Origin: an uncultured Fodinibius sp.
GTDB taxonomy: Bacteria; Bacteroidota; Rhodothermia; Balneolales; Balneolaceae
Reading direction: 5' to 3'
Assembly (NCBI GenBank): GCA_913056235.1
Contig: CAJXMW010000001.1
Location: forward strand, 1-64,000
DNA: 64,000 bases
Shown piece by piece: positions 1-16,427 of this stretch (position 1 is the first letter of the stretch; every line of letters starts with the position of its first letter). Made by a program: the position numbers and the translations under genes. A model generated the notes under the pieces. The model was not told the origin of the DNA. It saw nothing but the letters and a program-made list of their open reading frames with translations, and searched no databases.

Positions 1-46
1 TATAAAACACCGGTAGAACTACTACCTTAACCGAAATCCTCTACTT

Positions 47-3000
47 TTGAGTGGTCCGAAAAATGGGGAAGCTTACACAATCAGCAAGAAAAAAATAACA
101 AAAAATGAGTTGTCTAAATATTCAGAACTTAGAAATGAAGAGGTCATAACAATAGTTGACAAATTTGATTTCATAGAATTCGACGCTTCTAAAGAAAAAA
201 TATCTTTTATTTCAGAAGCACACCGAAAATTTGCCAAAAAACAAGTTGCAGACTTCACTGAAACAGCTCATGAAAAGATCATTAATAGTCTTTTAACCAA
301 TTTTAAAAGCCAAAACTCAATACAAAACCTTCCAGACTATTTAGAGGATTCAAAAAAGTATAAAGAACTTATAAGTTGCTTAAATGAAGACTATTACCAA
401 GAAGCATTAAAACAAACTGAGTCTTTAAACTTTATTCAGAAAAGAGCTGAGCAAGGCTTAAAAAGTGCCATTAACATAGATGACCTTTCCTCTCTATTTA
501 AATTCAGCCTTCAAAAGTCACTAATGTTGGGCCTTCTCAAAGCAAATATTTTAAAATCCGAAGTAGAAGCTCGCTTATTTGTTGAAGATCATGAACGCGC
601 CCTAGCATTAGCTCAAAGTAGTTTGTTAAAGGAAGATAGACTTCATCTTCTTAGTATAATTGCGAAATATTTTAAAAAAAATAATATAGATCTTGATGAT
701 GAAATAATTGAACAGATAAACCTTCTTTCAAACCAAATAGATACAGACTCACTAGGCCAGAAATCAGTTGAAATTGCTTCTAATCTTATTTGGATCAATC
801 TTGATCTAGCAATAGATATTGTTGAGAAATCAAATAATATATCAAACGAAAATGGCAAAAATAATATTGATTTAGCTTTTGCAAAACTTTCAGTAGAAGC
901 CTTTAATGCCCAAAGTAGTGAAGCTAACTACAAAGATGTAGTCGAAAAAACTACTGAGAAAAATTCAGATCCAGGTATACAAAATTTTCTTAATGCTGCA
1001 TCTCTTTTTGCAGAAGATTTCTCAACTAAAAAACTGATTGCAAAAGTTGAAGATCTTGAAGTAAAGAACAGACTATTTATACTAAGACAATGGATCTTAA
1101 ATAATCGTGATAATAAAGAGATTACAGAAATAGTCGAATACTCTCTTGACCAGTTAGTTTCAACTACAAATTACACCCCTAAATTAAGAGATCTTAGAGA
1201 AATATCTACCCCCTTACCTAAAGTAAATGATCCCGAAAAGGCTAAGAAATTAGTAGGGAGAATTGACAGCCTAATAAATTCAATGCATGATCTTGGAACC
1301 ACCATTGACTATGTCAGATTACAGATTGTTTTAGGTAAAACGGAACTAAATATTGGAGCTACTGAAGCTTCTTACCATAGAATAATTGAACTTTATTGGG
1401 ACATTTGCAACATAAATAACCTGTCAATTAGGACTGAAAGCATAGCTTGGTTTTTATCAGAATATCAAAACCTTGATCCCGATAAAGTAATAGAAGAAAA
1501 TGAACAACTTCTTACTGTATTACAAGAAAGCTTGGACAAAAATATTGATAGCCTTCTAAAATCAACAGCCTCTCATTACCAAGTAACTAAAGATATTATT
1601 AAAGCTTTATCTAAGAACCATCCACAAAAAGGTCTAGAAATAGCAAAATCCTTAAACACCCAGTCAAAACGAGATAAGGCATTATTTAATTTTTTAAAAC
1701 GTGAATCGAAGAAAAAAATCACAAACATAAACTTTGACTTAATTATCAATGCTCATGATGAAATATCGCATCAAAGTAAACGCGATAAAGCTTTACTAAT
1801 GGTAGTTGAAAATATTAACAACTCAGATATCGACAATATAGATAGAGCAATAGAACTAAAGCCTAAAATTGAAAATGTCAGTGACCATCAAACTAAAGTA
1901 CTAGTTTATTCACATTTCATTTCTTTGATATCATGCAGTGATTCAAAAGGTAAATATAAGAGTCTTGTAGAATATTTATTTAAAAAGCTTGACGAGACTT
2001 GGAAGGAAATTGATACTGCTTGGATAAAAGTCGACGCTGGATTTCTAATATCAAAAATTCTGTCCAAATACTCTAAAGATGTTGGTGCTAAATACTTAAA
2101 CAAAACTGAAGAATTTAAAAAGAATTTGACAATCTATTCTCAACAAGCAGCCATTACTTATACTGGGTCCATTAGAATTGCAATAAGAGCTTTTGCTGGT
2201 CTACTAGATAAAGATTTATTTACAAATAGCGATATTGAAAGAATTGAAAAATATATAAATAAGATACCTTCAAATGGGGAAAGGGTAGCAATATGGACCG
2301 ATTTCGCTTTGCGGTGTTATTCAAGAGGAAATAATGAGCTGGGTACAAAAATCACGAACCAGTATGTTAGAGATATAATAGAAAGTACACCAAAAAACGA
2401 CCAATCATATTATCATTCAATAATATCTAATGCTGCCCCAGCTTTATATCAAGCTCATGAAAATACAGCGCTCGACCTGATAAAAAAGCTTCCTCAAGAA
2501 TATCAAGAGACTGCAATATCAAATACAATTGAATTCATATTTAGAAAAAAACCTCTTGATGATCCATTCAACAATTCCCCAAATGGTGGCTACAAGATAA
2601 ACCATCAAAATGCAGTCGATATTCTTAAGCTGTTAGAATATGTAGATACTGATAAACAGTTATACAACCATATTGTGCAATTGGTTAATAGCCTAAATTC
2701 CAAAGACAATAAACAAGCCATTACTAGACAGCAAAAAGCTGATTTAGCTCATTCCTTGATTGATATTACTGAGTCAAAATTACCTGACAAAAAGAATATT
2801 AATCACAAAGGCTATTTAATTTCTGCCAAAGCATATTTGTTCACCTTACTAAGAACTAATCAAAAAGATTGGCAGGAGTTAGTATCAGAGGCTCAAAAAA
2901 TACCTAATAAAGCAGATAAAGTTTACGTACTCGGAATAATTGCCAGTAATCTCCGGAAGAATAAAGAACAAAGAGATAATCTATTGGATGATGTGGAAAA

Positions 3001-4189
3001 AATAATTAAACAAATACCATCAAAAATAGATCAGGTTAGTAGAAAAATACATATTGCAAACCTATTTGCGGATAAAAACACAAGTATATCTAAAAAATCG
3101 CTGAAATCTGCTATGGTATTTACTAAGGAAGAAGGAGAGGATGAAGGCAAAGCAATAAGCCAAAGACAAAAAAACATAATTGATCTTGCTCATAAAATTG
3201 ATCCAAACTTTGCTTCATCTTTAATTAATCTAATGGATAATGATCCTGCTAGAAATAATGCCAGAAACCCAATTAAAGAGCGACTTACATTACTAAACAC
3301 TAAAAAGACTATTGCTGAAGAGGATAACAGTTCTTCGATAAATAAAGAACATTACGCTCAAGCTGCTTGGATGAACTTAGGTTCATTAAATGCCAACAGG
3401 CTCCATACGATGCATAAAGAGAGCTTCAACAAACACTTTGAGGAATCTTCTGAACTAGATATTTATCAATCCTATGCAGTCTTATCATGGTTAATTGAAA
3501 ATGCAATAATTAGATACTCCAATACCGAAGAGGCAGAAAACATATTTTATCCGATATTTAATTCTTCTCTATTATCCTCAGAACTAACTACTTATATCAT
3601 ATCTTCTAATCAAGAATCAAATACCAAGGTTAAGCAAAATATTCAATTAGATAAGCAGAACAAGCATGCGATTACCATAAAAGAAGGTGAAAGAGATAAA
3701 GCCTTCAATTTTATACGAAGTTGGATTAAGGATAATGTTAATAACTATCTGAAAGTATGTGATCCTTATTTCGGATTGCAAGAACTTAACTTTTTGAAAC
3801 TAGTCAAAAATGAAAAACCCAATTGTAAAATATCAATTTTGACAAGTAAAAGACATCAAGAGAAAAGTGACATCCCTTACCAAGAAAAATTTAATACTTA
3901 CTGGAATTTAAATATATCAGAAGCTAAACCTCCGTTCACAAAAATTGTAATTGTAAGCTTAGGGAAATCAGGTAAGTCTCCAATCCATGATAGATGGTTA
4001 ATTTCTGACAAGAGTGGCTTAAAACTCGGTACCTCCTTGAATTCAATAGGCACAGATAAGGTCTCTGACATTTCAATTTTCTCAAATAACGAATTGGATG
4101 AAAAAGAATTTCAACTTAACCAATATTTAAACAATCAAAAATTTGAGCAAAATAATGAAAGAGTGAGTTACAACACTTTTAAATTGTAA
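47..4189 (+). CDS. Large helical-repeat protein with C-terminal PLD-like domain; probable part of a STAND/NACHT defence-type protein
   Basis: I do not recognise a named gene. Residues about 1-75 look like the winged-helix segment that follows a NACHT/STAND NTPase: a short helical run, then a strand pair with FIEFD and ISFISEAHRKFAKKQ. Residues about 75-1180 are almost wholly alpha-helical, with TPR/HEAT-like helix pairs and repeated phrases such as QSKRDKAL. The last 150 residues (about 1220-1380) look like a phospholipase-D-like domain, with IHDRWLISD followed by LGTSLNSIG, an HxR...GxSxN version of the HKD motif. No Walker A motif is visible, so any NTPase core would lie upstream of the window. 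The start used is TTG at 47, but the frame is open back to a TAG at 14-16 and the upstream codons (NRNPLLLSGPK) read like protein, so the N-terminus may be truncated or broken. Codon use is much more AT-rich than in the neighbours, suggesting transfer. Domain assignments are inference. Confidence 0.6.
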   Translation: MSGPKNGEAYTISKKKITKNELSKYSELRNEEVITIVDKFDFIEFDASKEKISFISEAHRKFAKKQVADFTETAHEKIINSLLTNFKSQNSIQNLPDYLEDSKKYKELISCLNEDYYQEALKQTESLNFIQKRAEQGLKSAINIDDLSSLFKFSLQKSLMLGLLKANILKSEVEARLFVEDHERALALAQSSLLKEDRLHLLSIIAKYFKKNNIDLDDEIIEQINLLSNQIDTDSLGQKSVEIASNLIWINLDLAIDIVEKSNNISNENGKNNIDLAFAKLSVEAFNAQSSEANYKDVVEKTTEKNSDPGIQNFLNAASLFAEDFSTKKLIAKVEDLEVKNRLFILRQWILNNRDNKEITEIVEYSLDQLVSTTNYTPKLRDLREISTPLPKVNDPEKAKKLVGRIDSLINSMHDLGTTIDYVRLQIVLGKTELNIGATEASYHRIIELYWDICNINNLSIRTESIAWFLSEYQNLDPDKVIEENEQLLTVLQESLDKNIDSLLKSTASHYQVTKDIIKALSKNHPQKGLEIAKSLNTQSKRDKALFNFLKRESKKKITNINFDLIINAHDEISHQSKRDKALLMVVENINNSDIDNIDRAIELKPKIENVSDHQTKVLVYSHFISLISCSDSKGKYKSLVEYLFKKLDETWKEIDTAWIKVDAGFLISKILSKYSKDVGAKYLNKTEEFKKNLTIYSQQAAITYTGSIRIAIRAFAGLLDKDLFTNSDIERIEKYINKIPSNGERVAIWTDFALRCYSRGNNELGTKITNQYVRDIIESTPKNDQSYYHSIISNAAPALYQAHENTALDLIKKLPQEYQETAISNTIEFIFRKKPLDDPFNNSPNGGYKINHQNAVDILKLLEYVDTDKQLYNHIVQLVNSLNSKDNKQAITRQQKADLAHSLIDITESKLPDKKNINHKGYLISAKAYLFTLLRTNQKDWQELVSEAQKIPNKADKVYVLGIIASNLRKNKEQRDNLLDDVEKIIKQIPSKIDQVSRKIHIANLFADKNTSISKKSLKSAMVFTKEEGEDEGKAISQRQKNIIDLAHKIDPNFASSLINLMDNDPARNNARNPIKERLTLLNTKKTIAEEDNSSSINKEHYAQAAWMNLGSLNANRLHTMHKESFNKHFEESSELDIYQSYAVLSWLIENAIIRYSNTEEAENIFYPIFNSSLLSSELTTYIISSNQESNTKVKQNIQLDKQNKHAITIKEGERDKAFNFIRSWIKDNVNNYLKVCDPYFGLQELNFLKLVKNEKPNCKISILTSKRHQEKSDIPYQEKFNTYWNLNISEAKPPFTKIVIVSLGKSGKSPIHDRWLISDKSGLKLGTSLNSIGTDKVSDISIFSNNELDEKEFQLNQYLNNQKFEQNNERVSYNTFKL

Positions 4190-4500: not shown

Positions 4501-4971
4501 ATGCCTAGCTTCAAGGGCCAATACGAACATAGTGTTGATAATAAAGGACGCGTTAGCTTCCCGGCTAAACTGCGTAAGGCCCTGAATCCGCAGGCGCAAG
4601 AGCGCTTTACTATATTAAGAGGTCTCGAACCCTGCCTTTATCTGTACCCAGAGGATGAATGGCAGAAAGTAGAGGATCAGCTTTCCCAGATCAACAGCTT
4701 TACCAAAGAAGGTCGCACAGTAAAACGTAACTTCCTTCGTTTTGCTGTAGATATTGATTTAGATAACCAGAATCGCATTCCTCTCCCTTCACAACTCACA
4801 GACTGGGCCGGTATCGATGGCAAAGCCATATTTATTGGCAGCGGTGAACGTATTGAAATATGGTCGCCCGAGAAACTGGCAGAAATCGATGATGGTCTGG
4901 ATTTTGAATCGTATCAGGAACTTTTTGAGCGCGTGATGGGTGACGATGACAATAACGATGAAAAACAATGA
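4501..4971 (+). CDS. mraZ: Transcriptional regulator MraZ
   Basis: First gene of the division and cell-wall cluster, 156 residues. It has two SpoVT/AbrB-like beta domains (about 5-50 and 75-125) with the family motifs VDNKGRVSFPAKLR in the first and DNQNRIPLPSQL in the second. MraZ forms ring oligomers and binds TGGG repeats; three such boxes lie 55-80 bases upstream, so it probably represses its own operon. Only a weak Shine-Dalgarno (GGGGA) precedes the ATG. The acidic C-terminal tail (GDDDNNDE) overlaps the start of rsmH. Confidence 0.95.
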   Translation: MPSFKGQYEHSVDNKGRVSFPAKLRKALNPQAQERFTILRGLEPCLYLYPEDEWQKVEDQLSQINSFTKEGRTVKRNFLRFAVDIDLDNQNRIPLPSQLTDWAGIDGKAIFIGSGERIEIWSPEKLAEIDDGLDFESYQELFERVMGDDDNNDEKQ

Positions 4972-6329: not shown

Positions 6330-8495
6330 ATGCAAAATGAACGTTCTGCCATATTGAGCCGTATGTTTATGGTCTTTGGGCTGGTACTACTGGTACCCTG
6401 TGCCATTGGTATGCAGCTTTTTCGTATCAACTTTGTGGAGGGACCGGAACTGCGCGAACTCTGGAACGAGCAGGCCATCGACTACATCCCCATTCCAGCT
6501 CAGCGTGGCAATATTTATGATCACAACGGCAGCCTGCTGGCCACAAATTCTGTTGCTTACAAAGTGGCACTGGATCCCAAAATAAAGGGGCTTACACGAA
6601 CGCAAATTCGGCAGATGTGTGATACATTGGGCAAATACACGAACCTTTCAGCCCGTTCGTATCTACAAAAAGTGGATTCCGCTCCGGCTCGCTCTCGCTA
6701 CGTGGTACTCAATAAAAATGTAGACACGGAAACACACCAAGCACTGCGACAACTCGATATCCGGGGCATCATACTGGAAGAAGAATACCAGCGGCGATAT
6801 AGTTTCGGCGCTCTGGCATCACATACGCTGGGATTTGTGAATCACGCCATGAACGGGATGACCGGCCTTGAAAAGTTATATAACAAGAAACTCAGCGGCG
6901 AAGATGGTGTTCAACAGGTTCGCCGCGAGCGTAACGGCAAGATTTCTGCATATTTGGGAGCCCCCCGAAAGAAACCGCAACAGGGGCACTCACTGCAAAC
7001 AACTATCGATTCTCACATTCAAGCTATTTTAGAAGAAGAACTTAAAGCCGGGATTGACCGAACGAGATCCGCCCACGGTTCTGCTATTGTCATGGATCCC
7101 AGAACAGGAGCCATTAAAGCAATGGCTAATTATCCCACATTCAATCCCAATAATCCTGCCTCCCTTGACAAAGAGAACCGCAGGAACTTTGCGATCTCGG
7201 ATATGATCGAACCCGGCTCTACTTTTAAGCTCGTGACGGCTATTGCGGCCGTGGAACAGGGCAAGGTGCACTTTGGCGAAAACTTTGAAACACCCGAAGA
7301 CGGCAAGCTGCAAATCCACGGACAGTGGATGCGTGACCATGATCCACTTGGCACACTTCGATTCTCGGAAGTGATCGAAAAGTCATCCAACATTGCTACG
7401 GCTAAGATCGCCATGCGGTTGTCCCGGGATACGTTTTACCAGTATGCCCGCAATCTGGGCTTTGGGACGCCAACCAACATTGATCTGCCCAATGAAGAAA
7501 CCGGGCGGCTGCCGAAACCTTACGAATGGAGTCAGGTTACGCTGCCATGGATGTCGATTGGATACGAAGTGCAGGTGACCCCTATTCAGCTAGCGCAGGC
7601 CTATGCAGCTTTTGCCAACGGCGGAAAGATGATGCGTCCTTATCTCGTAGAAAAAATTCTTAACAGCAACGATGAGGTGGTTTGGCAGCATAATGATGTG
7701 GCCGTGCGACAAATTGCCAACCAAGAAACGATCCAAAAACTCTATCCCGTTTTCCGTGACGTAGTATCCGATTCAGGGACAGCCGAAAAAGCACAGGTGC
7801 AAGGACTCCCCATCGCCGGCAAAACTGGGACTGCCCAAAAATATATCGACGGTCGCTACCGAAATAAGTATCGCTCTTCATTTGTGGGATTCTTTCCAGC
7901 ACAGGATCCTAAATACGTCTGCCTGATTATACTGGATGATCCGGACGTATATCCCCCATACGGTGGACAGACGGCCGGACCAATATTTCAACAGACGGCC
8001 AAGCGCATTGCCGGACTCGACAACGAAATTGAAAAACAGATTATCGAACGGGAACAAGATACTAATACCTGGGCCTATGCTCCCGATTTACAGGGTTTGA
8101 GCAAGGATGAAGCGCAAGCACTGCTGAAGGCCCAACAACTGCCCTACAACTTGGAAGGAAGCGGCGACCTGATTGTCAAGCAATCGCCCCAACCGGGTAC
8201 CCAACTTTCACCGGAAGATGAGATCACTCTTGAATTATCAAACACTATTGCCGTTGCAGATACAACCGAACTGCCGAATGGCTATTCTATTATTCCGGAT
8301 GTGGGAGGCATGAGCATGCGTAAAGCAACACTACTAATTAACAGTCAAGGATTTGAAGCAAAGATGATAGGCTCGGGCACGATATTCACACAATTTCCCC
8401 GCGCCGGCGACATGATGAAGAAAGGACGTACTATCACTGTTCGCGGCAAAGCCAAAGCACTGGAAACACTAACAAAAAACGGGACCACCGAGTGA
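6330..8495 (+). CDS. ftsI: Peptidoglycan transpeptidase FtsI (PBP3/SpoVD-like) with two PASTA domains
   Basis: Septal D,D-transpeptidase, 721 residues. An N-terminal membrane anchor (about 12-30) is followed by a dimerisation domain beginning near IPAQRGNIYDHNG and a transpeptidase domain. The catalytic set is visible: STFK with Ser297, SSN at 352-354 and KTG at 498-500. After residue 580 come two PASTA-like repeats (about 586-645 and 651-712), each with a helix followed by a QxPxxG-type turn (QSPQPGTQLSP, TQFPRAGDMMKKG). The C-terminal PASTA pair makes it closer to SpoVD than to E. coli FtsI. Its start abuts the ftsL stop and its end overlaps the murE start. Confidence 0.95.
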   Translation: MQNERSAILSRMFMVFGLVLLVPCAIGMQLFRINFVEGPELRELWNEQAIDYIPIPAQRGNIYDHNGSLLATNSVAYKVALDPKIKGLTRTQIRQMCDTLGKYTNLSARSYLQKVDSAPARSRYVVLNKNVDTETHQALRQLDIRGIILEEEYQRRYSFGALASHTLGFVNHAMNGMTGLEKLYNKKLSGEDGVQQVRRERNGKISAYLGAPRKKPQQGHSLQTTIDSHIQAILEEELKAGIDRTRSAHGSAIVMDPRTGAIKAMANYPTFNPNNPASLDKENRRNFAISDMIEPGSTFKLVTAIAAVEQGKVHFGENFETPEDGKLQIHGQWMRDHDPLGTLRFSEVIEKSSNIATAKIAMRLSRDTFYQYARNLGFGTPTNIDLPNEETGRLPKPYEWSQVTLPWMSIGYEVQVTPIQLAQAYAAFANGGKMMRPYLVEKILNSNDEVVWQHNDVAVRQIANQETIQKLYPVFRDVVSDSGTAEKAQVQGLPIAGKTGTAQKYIDGRYRNKYRSSFVGFFPAQDPKYVCLIILDDPDVYPPYGGQTAGPIFQQTAKRIAGLDNEIEKQIIEREQDTNTWAYAPDLQGLSKDEAQALLKAQQLPYNLEGSGDLIVKQSPQPGTQLSPEDEITLELSNTIAVADTTELPNGYSIIPDVGGMSMRKATLLINSQGFEAKMIGSGTIFTQFPRAGDMMKKGRTITVRGKAKALETLTKNGTTE

Positions 8496-9973
8496 CTTTC
8501 GACCAACTTATATCACTTTGCAAGCCGATTGACGTCTCGGGACCCGAGCCGAATACCATTGGTGCGCTTACGCAGGATTCCCGACAGGTGGAAGAAGGAT
8601 CGGTCTTCATCGCAATCAAAGGATTCCAGGTCGATGGACACACTTTTATTGACGACGCCATCGACAACGGTGCCTCGGTCATCATCTGCGAAGAAAGCTT
8701 CTATACCGATAAAGACGTCTGTGTGCTTGAAGTCACCGACACGCGATCGTTGGTTGGTCCCTTGGCACAAGCCTTTGAAGGGAACCCTGCCGATAAGATG
8801 AAGGTCATCGGCATCACCGGTACCAACGGCAAGACAACCGTTGCCACACTCACTTACCAAGCCCTGCAAAAACTGGGAGCGAAACCATCGCTGTTGGGCA
8901 CGGTGGCAAAACGGATTGGTGAAAAAGAGGTGGAAAGTCAGCTAACGACCTCCGATCCCATCGAGCTGGCCGCTGATATGGCCAAGATGGTCGAAGCGGG
9001 ATCGACACATCTGGTGATGGAAGTATCGTCACACGCACTTGACCAGAAACGAGTTGACGGTATCGATTTTGATGTGGCTGCATTTACGAATTTAAGCCAT
9101 GATCACCTGGACTACCACAACAATCTGAAATCCTATGCGGCCTCAAAGAAAATCCTTTTTGACAACCTGGATTCCCAGGCAACTGCAGTTATCAATGGGG
9201 ATGACAAGCAGGCCAACTTTATTGCGATGGACTGCCCGGCCAATATCATTGATTTCAGTTTCAAGAAAGCACTGGCGGCCGAATGCCAGGTACTCTCAAA
9301 TACCATCAATGGATTGGTACTGCGGATTGGCAAGACCATCATCGAAAGTCCACTGGTGGGTACCTTCAATGCCTATAACCTGTCCGAAGCATTTTTGATC
9401 TGCCGCGCGCTGGGTTACAAGGATAAAGAAATTGCTGATACTCTGGAATCCCTGCCGGGAGCCGCGGGTCGTCTCGAACGCATTGAAGGGTCGGGGCAGC
9501 ACGGCAATCCTATTGTCTTAGTCGATTACGCTCACACGCCGGATGCGTTGGAAAATGTAGCCTCTACCCTGGCTGATATCAAAGGGGAAAACCAGGAACT
9601 GCATATTGTCTTTGGATGCGGCGGTAATCGTGACAAGACCAAGCGTCCCAAGATGGCAAAGATTGCCGAAGAGTATGCAGATCGGATTACCGTCACCTCC
9701 GACAATCCGCGTGATGAAGAACCGGATGCTATTATTGATGATACGATGGAGGGCTTTAAAGATACTGAACCTGTAGAACGACTTACTGATCGCCGCAAAG
9801 CCATTGAAAAAGCTATTTACGACGGCAATCCCAACACCATGATTTTGATCGCCGGAAAAGGACATGAAACGTATCAGGAAATTGCAGGCGAACGCCACGA
9901 CTTCGATGACCGGCAAATAGCACGCGAGGCATTAGGTCACAGGAATGGTAATTCCAAAAACGAGGTGAGCTGA
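8492..9973 (+). CDS. murE: UDP-MurNAc-L-Ala-D-Glu:meso-diaminopimelate ligase
   Basis: ATP-dependent Mur ligase adding the third stem-peptide residue, 493 residues. It has the N-terminal substrate domain, then the P-loop GITGTNGKTTVA (about 107-118), the ligase core with TTSDPIEL and VMEVSSHALDQ, and a C-terminal domain with DNPR at 404-407. DNPR is the motif for meso-diaminopimelate, so the wall is predicted to be of the A1-gamma type. Translation starts at GTG 8492, overlapping the ftsI stop by 4 bases. No murF follows, although murF sits here in many other phyla. Confidence 0.95.
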   Translation: MTFDQLISLCKPIDVSGPEPNTIGALTQDSRQVEEGSVFIAIKGFQVDGHTFIDDAIDNGASVIICEESFYTDKDVCVLEVTDTRSLVGPLAQAFEGNPADKMKVIGITGTNGKTTVATLTYQALQKLGAKPSLLGTVAKRIGEKEVESQLTTSDPIELAADMAKMVEAGSTHLVMEVSSHALDQKRVDGIDFDVAAFTNLSHDHLDYHNNLKSYAASKKILFDNLDSQATAVINGDDKQANFIAMDCPANIIDFSFKKALAAECQVLSNTINGLVLRIGKTIIESPLVGTFNAYNLSEAFLICRALGYKDKEIADTLESLPGAAGRLERIEGSGQHGNPIVLVDYAHTPDALENVASTLADIKGENQELHIVFGCGGNRDKTKRPKMAKIAEEYADRITVTSDNPRDEEPDAIIDDTMEGFKDTEPVERLTDRRKAIEKAIYDGNPNTMILIAGKGHETYQEIAGERHDFDDRQIAREALGHRNGNSKNEVS

Positions 9974-11109
9974 TGCTATACGAACTCTTACATTGGCTTG
10001 AAGTTAATTACCAGCCGCCCGGTTTTGGTGCCTTTGAATTTATCACCACACGGGTAGCCGTAGCAGCGGCCATGGCCCTGTTTATCAGCATCATGATCGG
10101 CCGACGCATTATCGAATGGCTCGAAAAAATGCAGCTGCGCGAAGTCATTCGGGAAGATATCGGACTTGATACGCACCTTGGCAAAGCACATACGCCAACC
10201 ATGGGCGGCATCATCATTCTGCTTGCAGTACTCATCCCCGCCCTGTTATGGATGCGCATGGATAGCATCTATACGTGGATGATCATCCTCGTAACGTTGA
10301 TCCTGGGTATCGTCGGCTTTATAGATGACTACATTAAAGTGGTCAAACAAGACAAGACGGGGCTCAGTGGCAAACTCAAAGTTACAGGGCAAATTACGGT
10401 GGGATTGCTGCTTGGCATCACGCTATATTTCTGGCCGGACTTCCAGGATTTTAATACGCTCTCGACCGTACCATTTTTGAAGAATGTAAACATCGATTAC
10501 GCCTTCTTGGGCGAAGCACTGGGATGGGTCATCTACATCCCGATGGTGATTTTTGTGATTACTGCCGTGAGTAATGCCACCAACCTAACCGACGGACTTG
10601 ACGGTCTGGCGGCCGGCACCTGTGCTATCGCTGGACTCATTCTCGGTATTTTTGCCTATGTATCCGGCCGTACCGACTTCTCAGATTTTCTCAACATCAT
10701 ATACCTGCCCGGCGCTGGTGAGCTGACCATCTTCTGCGCATCCCTTGTAGGTGCCTGCATGGGCTTCCTTTGGTATAACACGCATCCGGCCTCGGTGTTT
10801 ATGGGTGACACCGGATCGCTGGCCCTCGGCGGCTCATTTGGAGCCATTGCACTGATGCTGCACAAGGAATTACTGCTCCCGATTATCTGCGGAATCTTCT
10901 TTGTAGAAACGCTTTCTGTGATTATTCAAACGACCTATTTCAAATATACCAAGCGAAAGTATGGGGAGGGTAAGCGCGTATTTCTGATGACGCCCATCCA
11001 CCATCACTTCGAGAAGAAAGGACTGCCCGAATCCAAGATCGTCGTTCGATTCTGGATTATCGCGGTACTCCTCGGAATTCTAAGCCTCTTAACCCTAAAA
11101 CTGCGATGA
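9973..11109 (+). CDS. mraY: Phospho-N-acetylmuramoyl-pentapeptide-transferase
   Basis: Integral membrane enzyme moving phospho-MurNAc-pentapeptide to undecaprenyl phosphate to make lipid I. The 378 residues hold about ten membrane helices. Signature cytoplasmic loops are present: GFIDDYIKV with the Asp pair, NATNLTDGLDGLAAG, VFMGDTGSLALGG, and MTPIHHHFE near the C-terminus. The start ATG shares one base with the murE TGA (TGATG) and the end overlaps murD by 4 bases, as expected in a tightly coupled operon. Confidence 0.97.
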   Translation: MLYELLHWLEVNYQPPGFGAFEFITTRVAVAAAMALFISIMIGRRIIEWLEKMQLREVIREDIGLDTHLGKAHTPTMGGIIILLAVLIPALLWMRMDSIYTWMIILVTLILGIVGFIDDYIKVVKQDKTGLSGKLKVTGQITVGLLLGITLYFWPDFQDFNTLSTVPFLKNVNIDYAFLGEALGWVIYIPMVIFVITAVSNATNLTDGLDGLAAGTCAIAGLILGIFAYVSGRTDFSDFLNIIYLPGAGELTIFCASLVGACMGFLWYNTHPASVFMGDTGSLALGGSFGAIALMLHKELLLPIICGIFFVETLSVIIQTTYFKYTKRKYGEGKRVFLMTPIHHHFEKKGLPESKIVVRFWIIAVLLGILSLLTLKLR

Positions 11110-12473
11110 GAGAAGTACAAAATAAACATATCGTCGTAGTTGGAGCCGCCCGCAGCGGGCTGGCCGTGGCTTCGTTGCTGAAGCGAAAAGGGGCGCGTGT
11201 GTTTGTGACGGATAACAGTGCTATTGCTAATCCGGTAAAAACAACACTGCAGGATCTGGGCATCCCATTCGAGGAAAACGGCCACACCGAAAAGGCTCGT
11301 GGCGCATATTTTGTGGCGCTCAGTCCGGGCGTGCCTACAGAGGCTCCGCTGGTTCAGGAATATCTTGAGGCCAACAAAGAAGTTTTCTCAGAAATTGAGA
11401 TTGCAAGCTGGTTCAACAAAAGTCCCATAGTAGCCGTGACCGGCAGCAACGGCAAAACCACAGTCACCAGCTGGCTGGATCACACGTGGAGCAAAGCCAG
11501 CCGCGATCACGTTACCGGCGGCAATATTGGACATGCGTTTTCTGATCAGGTAGAGCAGACCGGTAAGAATAAAGAAGCCATTTTAGAAGTCAGCAGCTTC
11601 CACCTGGATCATATTGATACGTTTCATCCGCATATCAGTCTACTGCTGAATGTGACGCCGGATCACCTGGATCGATACCAAAACGATTTTGATAAATATG
11701 CGGCCTCGAAATTTCGCATTACCGAGAATCAAACAAGCAACGACTGGTTCATCTACAACTATGATGACCCCAAGACGGCTGAGCATGTAGCATCGCTTAA
11801 AAAAAAAGCCGATGCCCCAAAACTGTTGGCGTTCTCCAATCAGCGAGAACTAAACGAAGTCGACGGGGCATTTGTGCGAAACGAGAATATAATCTTGAAG
11901 TTTAACCGAGAAGAAGAGGTTCTGATGCCGATTAGCGAAGTAAATATTTCTGGGAAGCATAACCTGAATAACGGTCTGGCCACCGCGTTGGCGGCCCGCG
12001 CTTCCGAAATCAAAAGTGATGTCATTCGCGAAAGCCTGCGCACCTTTGAAGGCGTGGAGCACCGCTTGGAACAGGTGCGTGAAGTTGATGGCGTCAAATA
12101 CGTCAACGACAGCAAGGCTACGAACATCAACGCTGTGTGGTACGCACTCGACAGCTTTGACGTACCGCTGACCCTGATTCTCGGGGGCCGCGACAAAGGA
12201 AATGATTATTCGGAGCTGGCAGAACTCATCCGAAAGAAAGTGCACACAATTATCGCGATCGGCGAAGCCAAGCCACTTATCGAAGAGCAGCTAAAATCGG
12301 TGGTCCCTCATCTTGAAACCGCCAAGACAATGAACGATGCCGTCCGCCAGGCCAAGGAAGGAGCCAAACGTGGCGAAGCGGTATTACTGAGCCCGGCCTG
12401 CTCTTCTTTCGACATGTACGAAAATTATGAACACCGAGGCAACGAATTCAAAAAAGCAGTAAACAGACTTTAA
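11106..12473 (+). CDS. murD: UDP-N-acetylmuramoylalanine--D-glutamate ligase
   Basis: Mur ligase adding D-glutamate, 455 residues. An N-terminal Rossmann-like domain (VVVGAARSGLAVASLL) precedes the P-loop VTGSNGKTTVTSW (about 115-127). The central blocks NVTPDHLDRY and GKHNLNNGLATALAA and the C-terminal YVNDSKATNINA and LILGGRDKG match the family. It overlaps mraY by the usual ATGA. It is followed by a 76-base gap with a palindromic repeat before ftsW, the first break in the otherwise overlapping run. Confidence 0.96.
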   Translation: MREVQNKHIVVVGAARSGLAVASLLKRKGARVFVTDNSAIANPVKTTLQDLGIPFEENGHTEKARGAYFVALSPGVPTEAPLVQEYLEANKEVFSEIEIASWFNKSPIVAVTGSNGKTTVTSWLDHTWSKASRDHVTGGNIGHAFSDQVEQTGKNKEAILEVSSFHLDHIDTFHPHISLLLNVTPDHLDRYQNDFDKYAASKFRITENQTSNDWFIYNYDDPKTAEHVASLKKKADAPKLLAFSNQRELNEVDGAFVRNENIILKFNREEEVLMPISEVNISGKHNLNNGLATALAARASEIKSDVIRESLRTFEGVEHRLEQVREVDGVKYVNDSKATNINAVWYALDSFDVPLTLILGGRDKGNDYSELAELIRKKVHTIIAIGEAKPLIEEQLKSVVPHLETAKTMNDAVRQAKEGAKRGEAVLLSPACSSFDMYENYEHRGNEFKKAVNRL

Positions 12474-12480
12474 GTAATCA

Positions 12481-12540
12481 GCTTTCAGTTTTCAGCTGTC
12501 GGTAATCACAACTGATAGCTGAAAGCTGAAGACTGAAAGC
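12481..12540. repeat. Palindromic intergenic repeat between murD and ftsW
   Basis: Arms of 17 bases (12481-12497 and 12524-12540) are inverted with one mismatch; the arm reads GCTTTCAGTTTTCAGCT. The inner part repeats CAGCT/AGCTG units. It has no poly-T tail and lies inside the operon, so it looks like a dispersed palindrome that may fold in the mRNA, not a terminator. Confidence 0.75.
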
Positions 12541-12549
12541 CAAGAATTT

Positions 12550-13740
12550 ATGTTATACACAACGCCAAATAAAAATATTTCGTCGATCATGGGCACCAGC
12601 CCAGACGATATTGATACACCGAAGCAGGGCAGCGATCGCGTGCTCCTAGTATCGGTGATCATCCTGATGATATTCGGGATCCTGGCCGTGTATTCTGCTA
12701 TTGCTTACTTTGCAGAAATCAAACAGACTACGGCCTGGAGCCTTGTTACCGGGCATATCGTGAAGCTGGGCATTGCCTTCCTGGGCATGCTGATTGCCTC
12801 CAAGATCGACTACCATCTGCTGGCCAAGTTCAGCAAAATTGGTCTTATCGCAAGCTGGTTACTACTGATCGCCGTGTTGTTATTTGGGAATGAAGTATTT
12901 GGCGCCCAACGATCCATTAACATTGGCGGATTTTCCTTCCAGCCGGCCCCCTTTGCTTCACTGGCGCTTCTAATTCACATTTCAGTGCTCTTGGCCAACA
13001 AGCAGGACTATATCAAAGATTTCAAGCGTACCTTCCTGCCGATCATGTTCTGGGTGGTTATCACCTGTGCACTCATTGGGGTGGAAGACTTTAGTAGCGC
13101 CGCTGTATTGATGGGCCTGTCGCTGCTGGTCATGTTTGTGGGTCGCATCAGCATGATACAACTGGGCACGCTCGTGATCATCGGGCTGCTGGGAGCCACT
13201 GTTTTGATCTGGCAATCGCCCGAGCGCCAGAGCCGCATTGACCAATACATAAGCCAGGTAGTCGATATCAATAGCGAAGAGTTTAACACTACCGAAGGTT
13301 ACCAGGCACAACAGGCGCATATCGCCATTGCCCAGGGCGAAATATTTGGCGTAGGGATGGGTAAGAGCACCCAGCGTGACTTTCTTCCGGCTCCCTATAA
13401 CGACTTTATTTTTGCAATCATCGCCGAAGAATATGGGCTACTGGGCTCCGTATCGCTCATTGTTCTGTTCTCGGTGATCTTGTTTCGCGGCATTGCCAAA
13501 ATCGCCAAAAATGCGCCCGATACACTGGGCATGCTGATGGCCGTCGGATGCACGCTCACGGTCGTACTTTATGGATTTATCAATGCGGGAGTAGCCAGCG
13601 GGCTGCTGCCGGTAACGGGTCTGCCAATGCCCTTTGTGAGCTACGGCGGAACCAACATTATGTTTGCCGGGCTGATGATCGGCATCCTTATGAATATCTC
13701 GAAGCATAACACAAATAAGCGAGCAGTATTTTATGCGTAG
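12550..13740 (+). CDS. ftsW: Septal peptidoglycan polymerase FtsW
   Basis: SEDS-family glycosyltransferase of the divisome, 396 residues with about ten membrane helices. It shows a FSFQPAPFA segment in the middle, the large periplasmic loop carrying GVGMGKSTQRDFLPAPYNDF with IIAEEYGLLGS, and GLPMPFVSYGGTNIM near the end, all typical of FtsW/RodA. Its position between murD and murG indicates FtsW over RodA. The ATG at 12550 gives a polar N-terminal extension of about 30 residues; a second in-frame ATG (in SSIMGTSP) is an alternative. The gene overlaps murG by 8 bases. Confidence 0.95.
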   Translation: MLYTTPNKNISSIMGTSPDDIDTPKQGSDRVLLVSVIILMIFGILAVYSAIAYFAEIKQTTAWSLVTGHIVKLGIAFLGMLIASKIDYHLLAKFSKIGLIASWLLLIAVLLFGNEVFGAQRSINIGGFSFQPAPFASLALLIHISVLLANKQDYIKDFKRTFLPIMFWVVITCALIGVEDFSSAAVLMGLSLLVMFVGRISMIQLGTLVIIGLLGATVLIWQSPERQSRIDQYISQVVDINSEEFNTTEGYQAQQAHIAIAQGEIFGVGMGKSTQRDFLPAPYNDFIFAIIAEEYGLLGSVSLIVLFSVILFRGIAKIAKNAPDTLGMLMAVGCTLTVVLYGFINAGVASGLLPVTGLPMPFVSYGGTNIMFAGLMIGILMNISKHNTNKRAVFYA

Positions 13741-14893
13741 CGCCGCAACGAACATATCATCACAGGACGGTCCAGACGCCGCTGCTATGGGCACAAAAAT
13801 AAAAGTGCTCATAGCAGCCGGGGGGACCGGCGGTCATGTGTACCCGGCCATCGCTATTGCCGATGCGCTGCGGGAGCAGTATGACAACCTTGATATCCTG
13901 TTTGTGGGCACTAAAAACCACATGGAGTGGGAGACCGTCTCCAAATCGGGCTACGACATCACCAGCATCTGGATCAGCGGCTTTCACCGGCGGCTGACAC
14001 TGAAAAATCTGCTATTCCCGGTAAAGCTGGTCACGAGCCTGGTACAAAGCCTGTCGATCATCAATCGCTTTACGCCCGATGTCGTGATTTCATGCGGCGG
14101 CTATGTAGCGGGTCCCGTTGGGTGGGTGGCAACCAAAAAAGGCGTGCCGCTAGTAATACAGGAGCAAAACAGCTATCCCGGCGTCACCAACCGGATTCTG
14201 GGGCGTAGTGCGAAAAAGATTTTTACCGCCTTCAAAGATGCGGATCACTACTTCCCCATTGGCAGTACAAAGGTGGCCGGAAACCCGACGCGAAAGTCGC
14301 TGACACAAGCAGATGAGCAAGAAGCATATAAGACATTTGAATTTGAAAACGACAAACGCACACTACTTGTGCTGGGTGGCAGCGGCGGAGCACGCAGCAT
14401 CAATGAAGCGATGCAAGAGCATATTGGAACGCTGCATGATGAGCTCGGTCTACAGATCATCTGGCAGTGCGGCAAACGATACTATGACCAGCTGCGCCGT
14501 GATGTCAACGTAAGTGAATACAAAAATTTGAGACTCAAAGATTTCATCCACGATATGCCGGCCGCTTACGCCATAGCCGATTTGGTGATCAGCCGCGCCG
14601 GGGCCCTCTCCTGTTCGGAACTGGCCCTTACCGGCAAACCGAGCATCCTGGTGCCATCGCCCAATGTAGCCGGCGACCACCAGACTAAAAATGCCGAATC
14701 AATGGTGGAGGAAGGTGCTGCGAAGCTGGCGGCGGATGACAACCTGAACAACACCTTGGTTAACTTGGTAAAACAAGTTATCTCCAACGAACAACAACTG
14801 GCTGAGATGAGTAAGGCGGCCAAAGAACTAGCAAGACCTGATGCAGCAACAACAATCGCAAAAGAGGTGTTAGAACTGGCAACAAAAGATTGA
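13733..14893 (+). CDS. murG: Lipid II-forming N-acetylglucosaminyltransferase MurG
   Basis: Membrane-associated GT-B glycosyltransferase converting lipid I to lipid II. The 386 residues include the N-terminal glycine loop AAGGTGGHVYPAIAIA (about residue 27 on), the second glycine loop VLGGSGGARSIN, and the C-terminal ISRAGALSCSELALTGKPSILVP and GDHQTKNA nucleotide-sugar motifs. The ATG at 13733 lies inside ftsW and adds about 18 polar residues before MGTKIKVLIA. The internal ATG there could be the true start. Confidence 0.96.
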   Translation: MRSAATNISSQDGPDAAAMGTKIKVLIAAGGTGGHVYPAIAIADALREQYDNLDILFVGTKNHMEWETVSKSGYDITSIWISGFHRRLTLKNLLFPVKLVTSLVQSLSIINRFTPDVVISCGGYVAGPVGWVATKKGVPLVIQEQNSYPGVTNRILGRSAKKIFTAFKDADHYFPIGSTKVAGNPTRKSLTQADEQEAYKTFEFENDKRTLLVLGGSGGARSINEAMQEHIGTLHDELGLQIIWQCGKRYYDQLRRDVNVSEYKNLRLKDFIHDMPAAYAIADLVISRAGALSCSELALTGKPSILVPSPNVAGDHQTKNAESMVEEGAAKLAADDNLNNTLVNLVKQVISNEQQLAEMSKAAKELARPDAATTIAKEVLELATKD

Positions 14894-14911
14894 ATGAATT
14901 AAAAATTAACA

Positions 14912-14980
14912 TGTCATGCTGAAGTTGTTTCAGCATCAATATACAGATGTTGAAGATCCTGAAATGAGTTCAGGATGACA
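14912..14980. repeat. REP-like element, full copy 1 (murG-murC gap)
   Basis: Framed by TGTCAT and ATGACA. It holds two small stem-loops: GCTGAAGTTGTTTCAGC on the left and ATCCTGAAATGAGTTCAGGAT on the right. The same layout recurs at 16485, 17411 and 58588, with half copies at 36441 and 54564. Confidence 0.85.
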
Positions 14981-15002
14981 TTGTAAATGACAAAAGAACG
15001 CA

Positions 15003-16427
15003 ATGAGTAAGCAAATACAAACACAGCCCATATTTGGACGAACCCGCCACATCCACATGGTAGGTATTGGCGGGATTGGTATGAGCGGAATGGCGGAGAT
15101 TCTGTTGCAAAAAGGATATACCATCACGGGCTCAGATGCCAACATGGGCGAAACTATCGAGCGCCTGCAAAAGCTCGGTGCTAAAATTTCTATTGGCCAT
15201 GATGAGGCCAATATCGAAAGCGCTGATGTAGTCGTCTATACCAGTGCCGTACAAGCCGAAGAAAATATTGAAACAAAGACCGCACTCGAAAAAGGCATTC
15301 CCGTCATCAAACGTGCCGAAATGCTGGCCGAGCTGATGCGCATGAAGTACGGCGTGGGCGTTGCCGGTACCCACGGCAAGACTACAACCACAACGATGAT
15401 CGGCCATGTTATTCAGGACGGTAGCTTTGATCCCACAATTATGGTGGGCGGAAAGGTACACAGTTTTTCCAAGACCAATGCCGTAGTCGGCAAAGGCGAT
15501 ATCATCGTGGTCGAAGCCGATGAGTTTGACCGAACATTTTTGCGGCTGACGCCTTCGCTCGGCGTGATTACGAATATTGAAGCTGAGCATCTGGACATCT
15601 ATGACAACCTTGCTGATGTCAAAGATGCGTTTATCGAATTTGCCAACAAGGTGCCCTTTTACGGGGCCGTGGCGCTCTGCCTGGATGATCCCAATGTACG
15701 GAGCATCATCCCGTCCATTGAACGTCGCACGATCACATATGGACTGACGCCACAGGCACAGGTCCGCGCCGTTGATATTAATGTGGATCACTTTATGAGC
15801 ACATTTACAGTGATCAACGAGGGCGAAAAACTGGGTGAAATCAATCTGAATGGACCCGGTGAGCATAACGTAAAAAATGCGTTGGCAGCCGTGGCGGTAG
15901 GATTGGAATTGGATATTGATTTTGAGTACATAAAGTCTGGACTTGAGCGATTTGAAGGTGTGTTCCGGCGCTTCCAGCTCAAGGCTGAGAAAGACAATGT
16001 GATGGTTATTGATGACTATGCGCATCATCCCACAGAAGTACAGGCCACGCTAAATGCAGCCCGTAAAGGATGGAAAGATCGTCGTATCGTAGCTGTTTTT
16101 CAGCCACACCTGTTTTCTCGGACACAGGAGCTATATAAGGAGTTTGGAACCTCATTTTTTGATGCGGAGGTCTGCGTGATTACGGATGTGTATCCATCGC
16201 GCGAAGAACCTATTGAAGGCGTGACAGGCAAACTGATCGCCGATGTGGCCAAAGAATACGGCCACCGCAAAGTCCACTATGTGGAAGACAAGGCTGAGCT
16301 GCCGCGACAACTGAAAGAAATTGTGGAGCCCGGTGATGTCGTCATCACTATGGGCGCCGGCGACATTTATAAATATGGCGAACAGTTCGTAGAAGCGCTG
16401 GAAGCCGGAATCTCGAAATTGAAATGA
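15003..16427 (+). CDS. murC: UDP-N-acetylmuramate--L-alanine ligase
   Basis: First Mur ligase of the pathway, 474 residues. The N-terminus RHIHMVGIGGIGMSGMAEIL is the UDP-MurNAc-binding Rossmann loop. The P-loop is GVAGTHGKTTTTTMIG (about 117-132). EADEFDRTFL, NIEAEHLDIYD and GEHNVKNALAA follow, and the C-terminal domain has DDYAHHPTEV and FQPHLFSRT. It lies between two REP-like elements and may be transcribed with the rest of the cluster. No ddl fusion and no murB are present downstream, unlike in some other phyla. Confidence 0.97.
   Translation: MSKQIQTQPIFGRTRHIHMVGIGGIGMSGMAEILLQKGYTITGSDANMGETIERLQKLGAKISIGHDEANIESADVVVYTSAVQAEENIETKTALEKGIPVIKRAEMLAELMRMKYGVGVAGTHGKTTTTTMIGHVIQDGSFDPTIMVGGKVHSFSKTNAVVGKGDIIVVEADEFDRTFLRLTPSLGVITNIEAEHLDIYDNLADVKDAFIEFANKVPFYGAVALCLDDPNVRSIIPSIERRTITYGLTPQAQVRAVDINVDHFMSTFTVINEGEKLGEINLNGPGEHNVKNALAAVAVGLELDIDFEYIKSGLERFEGVFRRFQLKAEKDNVMVIDDYAHHPTEVQATLNAARKGWKDRRIVAVFQPHLFSRTQELYKEFGTSFFDAEVCVITDVYPSREEPIEGVTGKLIADVAKEYGHRKVHYVEDKAELPRQLKEIVEPGDVVITMGAGDIYKYGEQFVEALEAGISKLK

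What the first reader, a model, noticed from the sequence alone, without database searches (positions are those of the whole stretch)
14..4189. Candidate STAND/NACHT-type protein with a C-terminal phospholipase-D-like domain
The 1380-codon gene has a winged-helix-like start, more than 1000 residues of helical repeat and a terminal IHDRWLISD...LGTSLNSIG motif of HxR-type PLD-like proteins. In known STAND defence proteins (for example Avs) the effector is N-terminal and the repeat sensor C-terminal. An effector-like domain at the far C-terminus would be an unusual order. Domain calls are by eye.
Basis: partly seen in the sequence, partly recalled or inferred. Interest (0 to 1): 0.75.

Follow-up and report, generated by a model that had tools for sequence, protein, structure and literature searches.

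The report
Split STAND immune-type gene, C-terminal PLD
The window opens with the last four-fifths of a large bacterial immune-receptor-like gene (ATPase switch, long helical sensor and, unusually, a phospholipase-D-like domain at the very end) that has been broken in two by a jumping gene; intact relatives are rare but occur on mobile DNA in many bacterial phyla.

Summary
The finding holds up. ORF 47-4189 is the 3' part of a split gene of about 1650 codons. Window bases 1-77 are the end of a multicopy IS3-like element. The missing 5' part lies at the end of contig C5, stops at the element's other end, and encodes the predicted NTPase (Walker A GEEGVGKT, Walker B FFVIVDGLPD). A 4-bp duplication (CAAT) flanks the insertion, which falls inside the winged helix. 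Intact relatives of 1620-1680 aa occur in Bacillota, Pseudomonadota, Chloroflexota, Bacteroidota and others, all in one order: NTPase, winged helix, long helical repeat, PLD-like domain. The NTPase/repeat model matches Avs3, Apaf-1 and MalT; the C-terminal model matches NucT, Nuc and Zucchini (Z up to 13.5). The PLD motif is HDR-x11-GTS, with H, D and R invariant in 22 of 22. The family is patchy (about 0.3-1% of genomes), on plasmids, beside Tn7-like genes and near other defence genes. Best reading: a one-gene anti-phage STAND system with a C-terminal PLD output domain, inactivated here by the insertion. Architecture is shown; defence and PLD catalysis are inferred. MalT is a precedent for C-terminal output, so this is a new variant of a known kind.

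The parts
1..77 (-). Right end of a multicopy IS3-like insertion element (reverse complement starts TGTAAGCTTCCCC).
   Evidence: Bases 3-79 are 100% identical to the first 77 bases of contigs C3 and C4; a similar end occurs at IS3-family transposases such as ISAs22; the other end is present at four contig ends.
78..81 (.). CAAT, 4-bp direct repeat flanking the insertion (the other copy is at G000:C5:424132-424135)
   Evidence: Read directly.
80..4189 (+). 3' segment (1369 codons and stop) of the interrupted STAND-PLD gene. The 5' segment is G000:C5:423285-424135 (L046:13286-14136), outside the window.
   Evidence: tblastn over the whole length to proteins of 1633-1657 aa on plasmids; family alignment; 5' segment found by profile, E 2.1e-77.
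80..245 (+). Remaining part of the winged-helix domain; the insertion cuts it after its first helix
   Evidence: Alignment with relatives and secondary structure of the L017 model.
246..3650 (+). Long all-helical repeat region, putative sensor/scaffold
   Evidence: Helix pairs throughout the model of residues 1-1100 of relative L017 and the N-terminal half of the C-terminal model; no Pfam repeat family matches.
3656..4186 (+). C-terminal PLD-like domain, single motif
   Evidence: AlphaFold2 pLDDT about 93 over the domain; VIA-align Z 13.5 to NucT, 12.8 to Nuc, 12.2 to Zucchini, 10.1 to BfiI.
3986..4036 (+). HDR...GTS variant of the HKD motif (HDRWLISDKSGLKLGTS)
   Evidence: H, D, R, G, T and S invariant in the 17 aligned C-termini; HDR in 22 of 22 members.
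4501..4971 (+). mraZ, first gene of the cell-division cluster; marks the right edge of the accessory insertion
   Evidence: In four congeneric genomes an S9 peptidase gene lies 388-516 bp from mraZ with nothing between.

Best explanation
The ORF is the 3' part of a one-gene, anti-phage-type STAND NTPase of about 1650 codons with the order NTPase, winged helix, long helical repeat, C-terminal PLD-like domain. In intact relatives the repeat region most likely recognises an infection signal, ADP/ATP exchange in the NTPase drives oligomerisation, and this pairs the C-terminal PLD-like domains. Single-motif PLD enzymes need two copies for one active site, so pairing would switch on a nuclease (less likely a lipase) that destroys phage and/or host DNA. 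In this genome the gene is inactive: an IS3-like element sits inside the winged helix, leaving the NTPase part and the repeat-PLD part on opposite sides. Shown: architecture, interruption, mobility, conserved motif. Inferred: defence, oligomer-driven activation, nuclease activity.
For: Split gene; the S9 peptidase-mraZ order in congeners confirms that C5 end and C1 start are neighbours. STAND: Pfam AAA_16/NPHP3_N/NACHT/NB-ARC hits in most members, Walker A, Walker B (hhhhDGL) and GxPG motifs, model matches Avs3, a TPR-STAND, Apaf-1, MalT and CED-4. PLD. Fixed architecture: relatives found with the NTPase/repeat profile alone also end in the PLD domain. No conserved partner gene, so the effector should be within the protein, and the PLD is the only candidate. 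Defence-like mobility and context: plasmids, Tn7-like tns genes beside three members, type I restriction, OLD-TOPRIM, HNH, DUF262/HEPN and KwaB-like neighbours, PADLOC hits among neighbours. Patchy: 4 of 394, about 4 of 399 and 1 of 398 genomes. A C-terminal Lys-to-Arg HKD nuclease is described on the BREX AAA+ protein BrxL (PMC12839542).
Against: No functional test of any member. The HKD Asp is not conserved and Lys is Arg, so the domain could be inactive; non-catalytic PLD folds (FAM83, TrmB, MITD1) match about as well as NucT. Enrichment near defence genes was not measured against a control. Two members have Ala for the Walker A Lys and one has Arg.
Confidence: 0.66

Rival explanations
1. 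Same STAND protein, but the C-terminal PLD-like domain is a non-catalytic sensor or adaptor (as in TrmB or FAM83) that binds the trigger; output comes from the oligomer itself or from an unlinked effector.
For: Sensors of Avs and bNACHT are C-terminal (PMC12169576). Non-catalytic PLD folds FAM83, TrmB and TrmBL2 are among the best matches with NucT. The motif lacks the HKD Lys and Asp.
Against: H, D and R are invariant in 22 of 22 members at 25-35% identity. No N-terminal effector exists (the NTPase starts within about 25 residues of the start) and no conserved partner gene was found. The same domain occurs in a VPA1262-type protein beside an SMC-like ATPase gene and as a small separate protein, as an effector module would.
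Confidence: 0.25
2. A STAND regulator with no role in defence, of the MalT type, that controls a metabolic or stress response.
For: MalT shares NTPase, winged helix, TPR-like region and C-terminal output and is a fold match.
Against: No DNA-binding output domain, no conserved operon, patchy distribution, and mobile or defence-like contexts.
Confidence: 0.08
3. The reader's ORF is still expressed as a separate 1380-aa protein from the TTG at 47, using signals in the insertion element, and acts as a free repeat-PLD protein.
For: The 3' part is open over 1369 codons with no further lesion.
Against: The start codon and first 11 codons are element sequence; the NTPase that should control it is separated; an open frame also fits a recent insertion.
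Confidence: 0.06
4. The split is an assembly artefact: the element is not inside the gene and the two contigs were cut there by chance.
For: The junction falls on contig ends of a short-read-like assembly; the element body is not in the assembly.
Against: Both element ends, matching terminal inverted repeats and a 4-bp duplication are present at the junctions, as for a true insertion. The neighbouring gene order agrees.
Confidence: 0.04

Closest known systems
Avs (AVAST) antiviral STAND NTPases, e.g. Avs3 (PDB 8dgc)
   Same: STAND NTPase plus a long helical repeat; best fold match of the N-terminal 1100 residues; sporadic and in defence neighbourhoods.
   Different: Avs carries its effector at the N-terminus; this family has none there and a PLD-like domain at the C-terminus. 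No PADLOC Avs model matches.
bNACHT proteins (bacterial NLR-related)
   Same: NACHT-like P-loop region, weakly matched by the Pfam NACHT model in 8 of 12 members.
   Different: Described as N-terminal effector and C-terminal sensor (PMC12169576); the order here is different.
MalT-type STAND regulators (PDB 8bob)
   Same: NTPase, winged helix, TPR-like arm, output domain at the C-terminus; fold match.
   Different: The MalT output is a LuxR-type DNA-binding domain (own knowledge), here a PLD-like domain; the repeat region here is much longer.
BrxL with C-terminal HKD endoDNase (Lys-to-Arg variant) of type 1 BREX
   Same: PLD/HKD domain with Arg for Lys at the C-terminus of an AAA+ family protein in a defence system (PMC12839542).
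   Different: BrxL is a Lon-like AAA+ BREX component, not a STAND protein; no sequence comparison was made here.
PADLOC candidate PDC-S05 and NCBIfam VPA1262 N-domain
   Same: Their PLD-like stretch matches the C-terminus of relatives L010 and L009.
   Different: The models cover no STAND NTPase; function untested.
NucT, Nuc, BfiI, Zucchini (single-motif PLD nucleases)
   Same: Fold of the C-terminal domain, Z 10 to 13.5.
   Different: Canonical HxKx4D motif there, HDR-x11-GTS here.

Membership tests
STAND NTPases | P-loop NTPase with Walker A and hhhhD(G) Walker B | tested here: met
   5' part on C5: GEEGVGKT and FFVIVDGLPD. In the family most members have both; L009 and L018 have GATT and L020 GRTT at Walker A.
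STAND NTPases | Winged-helix module after the NTPase, GxP motif, then superstructure-forming repeats | tested here: met
   GxPG motif and winged helix in the alignment; model matches Avs3, 6mfv, Apaf-1, MalT and CED-4.
Avs/AVAST | Effector domain N-terminal to the STAND NTPase | tested here: not met
   NTPase begins within about 25 residues of the start in all full-length members.
Avs/AVAST | Match to curated Avs models | tested here: not met
   No PADLOC Avs hit for the window protein or for four full-length relatives.
Avs/AVAST | Recognition of phage terminase or portal and tetramer formation | not testable with these tools
   Needs biochemistry.
bNACHT | NACHT module over the family cut-off | tested here: inconclusive
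   8 of 12 members match PF05729 at E up to 0.01 and the best, L012, is over the cut-off; in the own genome the match is below it.
bNACHT | N-terminal effector, C-terminal sensor | tested here: not met
   Order is NTPase first, PLD last.
PLD superfamily | PLD fold | tested here: met
PLD superfamily | Canonical HxKx4D motif of catalytic members | tested here: not met
   HDR in place of HxK; the Asp is present in the window protein and L025 but not in most.
PLD superfamily | Phosphodiesterase activity | not testable with these tools
   Needs enzyme assay.
MalT-type regulators | LuxR-type DNA-binding output domain | tested here: not met
   The C-terminus is PLD-like; no such Pfam hit.
IS3-family element (interrupting) | Terminal inverted repeats, short target duplication, several copies | tested here: met
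   TGTAGGCTTCCCC / TGTAAGCTTCCCC ends, CAAT duplication, copies at other contig ends.
IS3-family element (interrupting) | OrfAB transposase | not tested
   The element body is missing from the assembly; only similarity of its end to IS3-family elements was seen.

The most novel reading that the evidence does not exclude
A separate, widely but thinly spread family of single-gene antiviral STAND proteins in which the output enzyme is at the far C-terminus: oligomerisation through the NTPase pairs single-motif HDR-type PLD domains into active nucleases, so effector order is reversed relative to Avs and bNACHT.
Probability: 0.45. Interest if true: 0.65.

Novelty: new variant of a known kind. Interest (0 to 1): 0.52.

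Why it matters
STAND proteins link bacterial, plant and animal immunity, and antiviral ones are described as effector first, sensor last. A fixed family in several phyla with the NTPase first and an enzyme-like domain last would show that the output can sit on the sensor side, and would give a simple test of activation by pairing of half-site enzymes. No Pfam, NCBIfam or PADLOC model describes it as a family, so annotators call it hypothetical or ATP-binding protein. The broken copy here is also an example of how such genes are lost.

Tried and rejected
Pfam, PADLOC and NCBIfam on the window ORF alone found nothing significant, nor did phmmer against PDB. A single-sequence scan of genome contigs found nothing; the scan with alignment A1 then worked. 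The NACHT family alone gave only a sub-threshold hit in the own genome, which proved to be the missing 5' part. No phage record holds the PLD domain; two near-identical viral contigs hold the whole gene. Alignment A2 was too diverse for a viral scan. A conserved partner gene was looked for and not found, apart from Tn7-like transposition genes and an HNH gene beside two members. Foldseek matches of the long helical part to Utp, IFT and importin chains were taken as generic helical-repeat matches.

Full report
What is in the window. The window is the first 64 kb of contig C1 of a 3.97-Mb, nine-contig genome. ORF 47-4189 exists as described, with an in-frame stop at 14-16. No Pfam, PADLOC or NCBIfam model recognises it.

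The gene is split. Bases 3-79 of the window are identical to the first 77 bases of two other contigs, C3 and C4, after which all three sequences diverge. They are a repeat end, and the shared length suggests a k-mer overlap at an unresolved repeat. A similar end is found beside IS3-family transposases on plasmids. A profile of the N-terminal regions of intact relatives found the missing 5' part at the end of contig C5 (E 2.1e-77). C5 is 424,211 bases long. The gene starts at C5:423285 and its sequence stops at 424135, where TGTAGGCTTCCCC... begins; this end is repeated at other contig ends. The window side reads ...GGGGAAGCTTACA and then CAATCAGC; the C5 side reads ...TTGCAAT and then TGTAGGCTTCCCC. 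The matching terminal repeats and the CAAT duplication are those of a true insertion. The two parts are in the same reading register and together have about 1650 codons, inside the family range. In four congeners an S9-peptidase gene lies 388-516 bp from mraZ with nothing between. In this genome the peptidase is the last complete gene on C5 and mraZ the next gene on C1, so the two contig ends are neighbours and the STAND gene is an accessory insertion between two conserved genes.

The family. tblastn on plasmids found four relatives over nearly the full length, and scans of genome and viral contigs found 19 and 2 loci. Full-length members have 1620-1680 residues. Their first ~290 residues match AAA_16, NPHP3_N, NACHT and NB-ARC models and carry Walker A, Walker B and GxPG motifs. 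The model of residues 1-1100 of L017 (mean pLDDT 85) matches Avs3 first, then a TPR-STAND protein, Apaf-1, MalT and CED-4. This is a STAND protein.

The C-terminus. The model of the last 329 residues (pLDDT 86 overall, about 93 in the domain) matches NucT, FAM83, Nuc, phosphatidylserine synthase, Zucchini, SauUSI and BfiI with Z 10 to 13.5. The fold is PLD-like. The motif is HDR-x11-GTS: HDR is invariant in all 22 members, while the Asp of HxKx4D is not conserved. A Lys-to-Arg HKD nuclease at the C-terminus of BrxL is reported as probably active (PMC12839542), but matches to non-catalytic PLD folds (FAM83, TrmB) mean that activity must be tested.

Is the order fixed? Searching with the NTPase and repeat profile only, without the PLD domain, gave further full-length members, and all of them end in the PLD domain. 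The domain also occurs elsewhere: in a VPA1262-type protein beside an SMC-like ATPase gene in Azospirillum and as a 222-aa protein in a congener, G008.

Context. Members lie on plasmids. Three adjoin Tn7-like tnsA/tnsB/tnsC/tniQ genes (L022, L023, L024), whose cargo is known to be rich in defence genes (PMC8649781). Neighbours include a type I restriction R protein (L025), OLD-TOPRIM (L026), HNH genes (L015, L031), DUF262/HEPN (L008) and a KwaB-like gene (L010). PADLOC models match many neighbours, but no control was run. No partner gene is shared. The family is rare: 4 of 394, about 4 of 399 and 1 of 398 sampled genomes in three groups, where the 4 of 394 includes one PLD-only protein. In a second genome of the same phylum, G377, the gene is interrupted by an IS21-type element.

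Mechanism. The repeat region probably senses, the NTPase oligomerises, and the paired PLD domains act. The steps shown are the architecture, the conserved motif and the absence of another effector. Sensing, oligomerisation and cleavage are inferred from Avs and from single-motif PLD enzymes. In this genome the gene is most likely dead.

Novelty. Antiviral STAND proteins are described as N-terminal effector and C-terminal sensor (PMC12169576). C-terminal output exists in MalT (own knowledge), and predicted GT4 effectors have been noted C-terminal to STAND domains (PMC8195603). The paper searches made here did not bring up a C-terminal PLD on a STAND protein, but the library lacks most subscription journals. 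Hence new variant of a known kind.

Noticed in passing
window 1-79; G000 C3:1-77, C4:1-77, C5 end, C2:602773-602849, C7 (two places): Many contig breaks of this assembly fall at one multicopy IS3-like element whose body is absent from the assembly; a partial diverged left end lies at C1:1113444-1113494.
   Followed up: partly
L077 (G377:C1:1271000-1290000), 7767-15265: Another family member is interrupted by an IS21-type istA/istB pair; its NTPase-repeat part and repeat-PLD part lie on either side.
   Followed up: partly
L022, L023, L024, directly downstream of the family gene: The STAND-PLD gene sits right beside the transposition genes of Tn7-like elements in Clostridium, Gracilibacillus and a proteobacterial MAG, probably as cargo.
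   Followed up: partly
L078:1139-1807 (G008:C10): A 222-aa separate protein in a congeneric genome ends in the same HDR...GTSLNGLG PLD-like domain; no Pfam match.
   Followed up: partly
L009, L018, L020 Walker A: Two members have GATT and one GRTT where others have GKT/GKS: possible loss of nucleotide hydrolysis in part of the family.
   Followed up: no
L015:5153-6082 and L031:1817-2731: Related HNH_2 endonuclease genes lie about 200 bp from the STAND-PLD gene in two distant members, on opposite sides.
   Followed up: partly
L011:2935-8522: Azospirillum plasmid pair: a 1314-aa ATPase with an SMC/AAA_23-like P-loop followed by a VPA1262-type protein with the same PLD-like domain; possibly a two-gene system using the same effector module.
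   Followed up: no
G000 C5 end to C1 start, between the S9-peptidase gene and mraZ: Accessory insertion site next to the cell-division cluster: empty in at least four congeners.
   Followed up: yes
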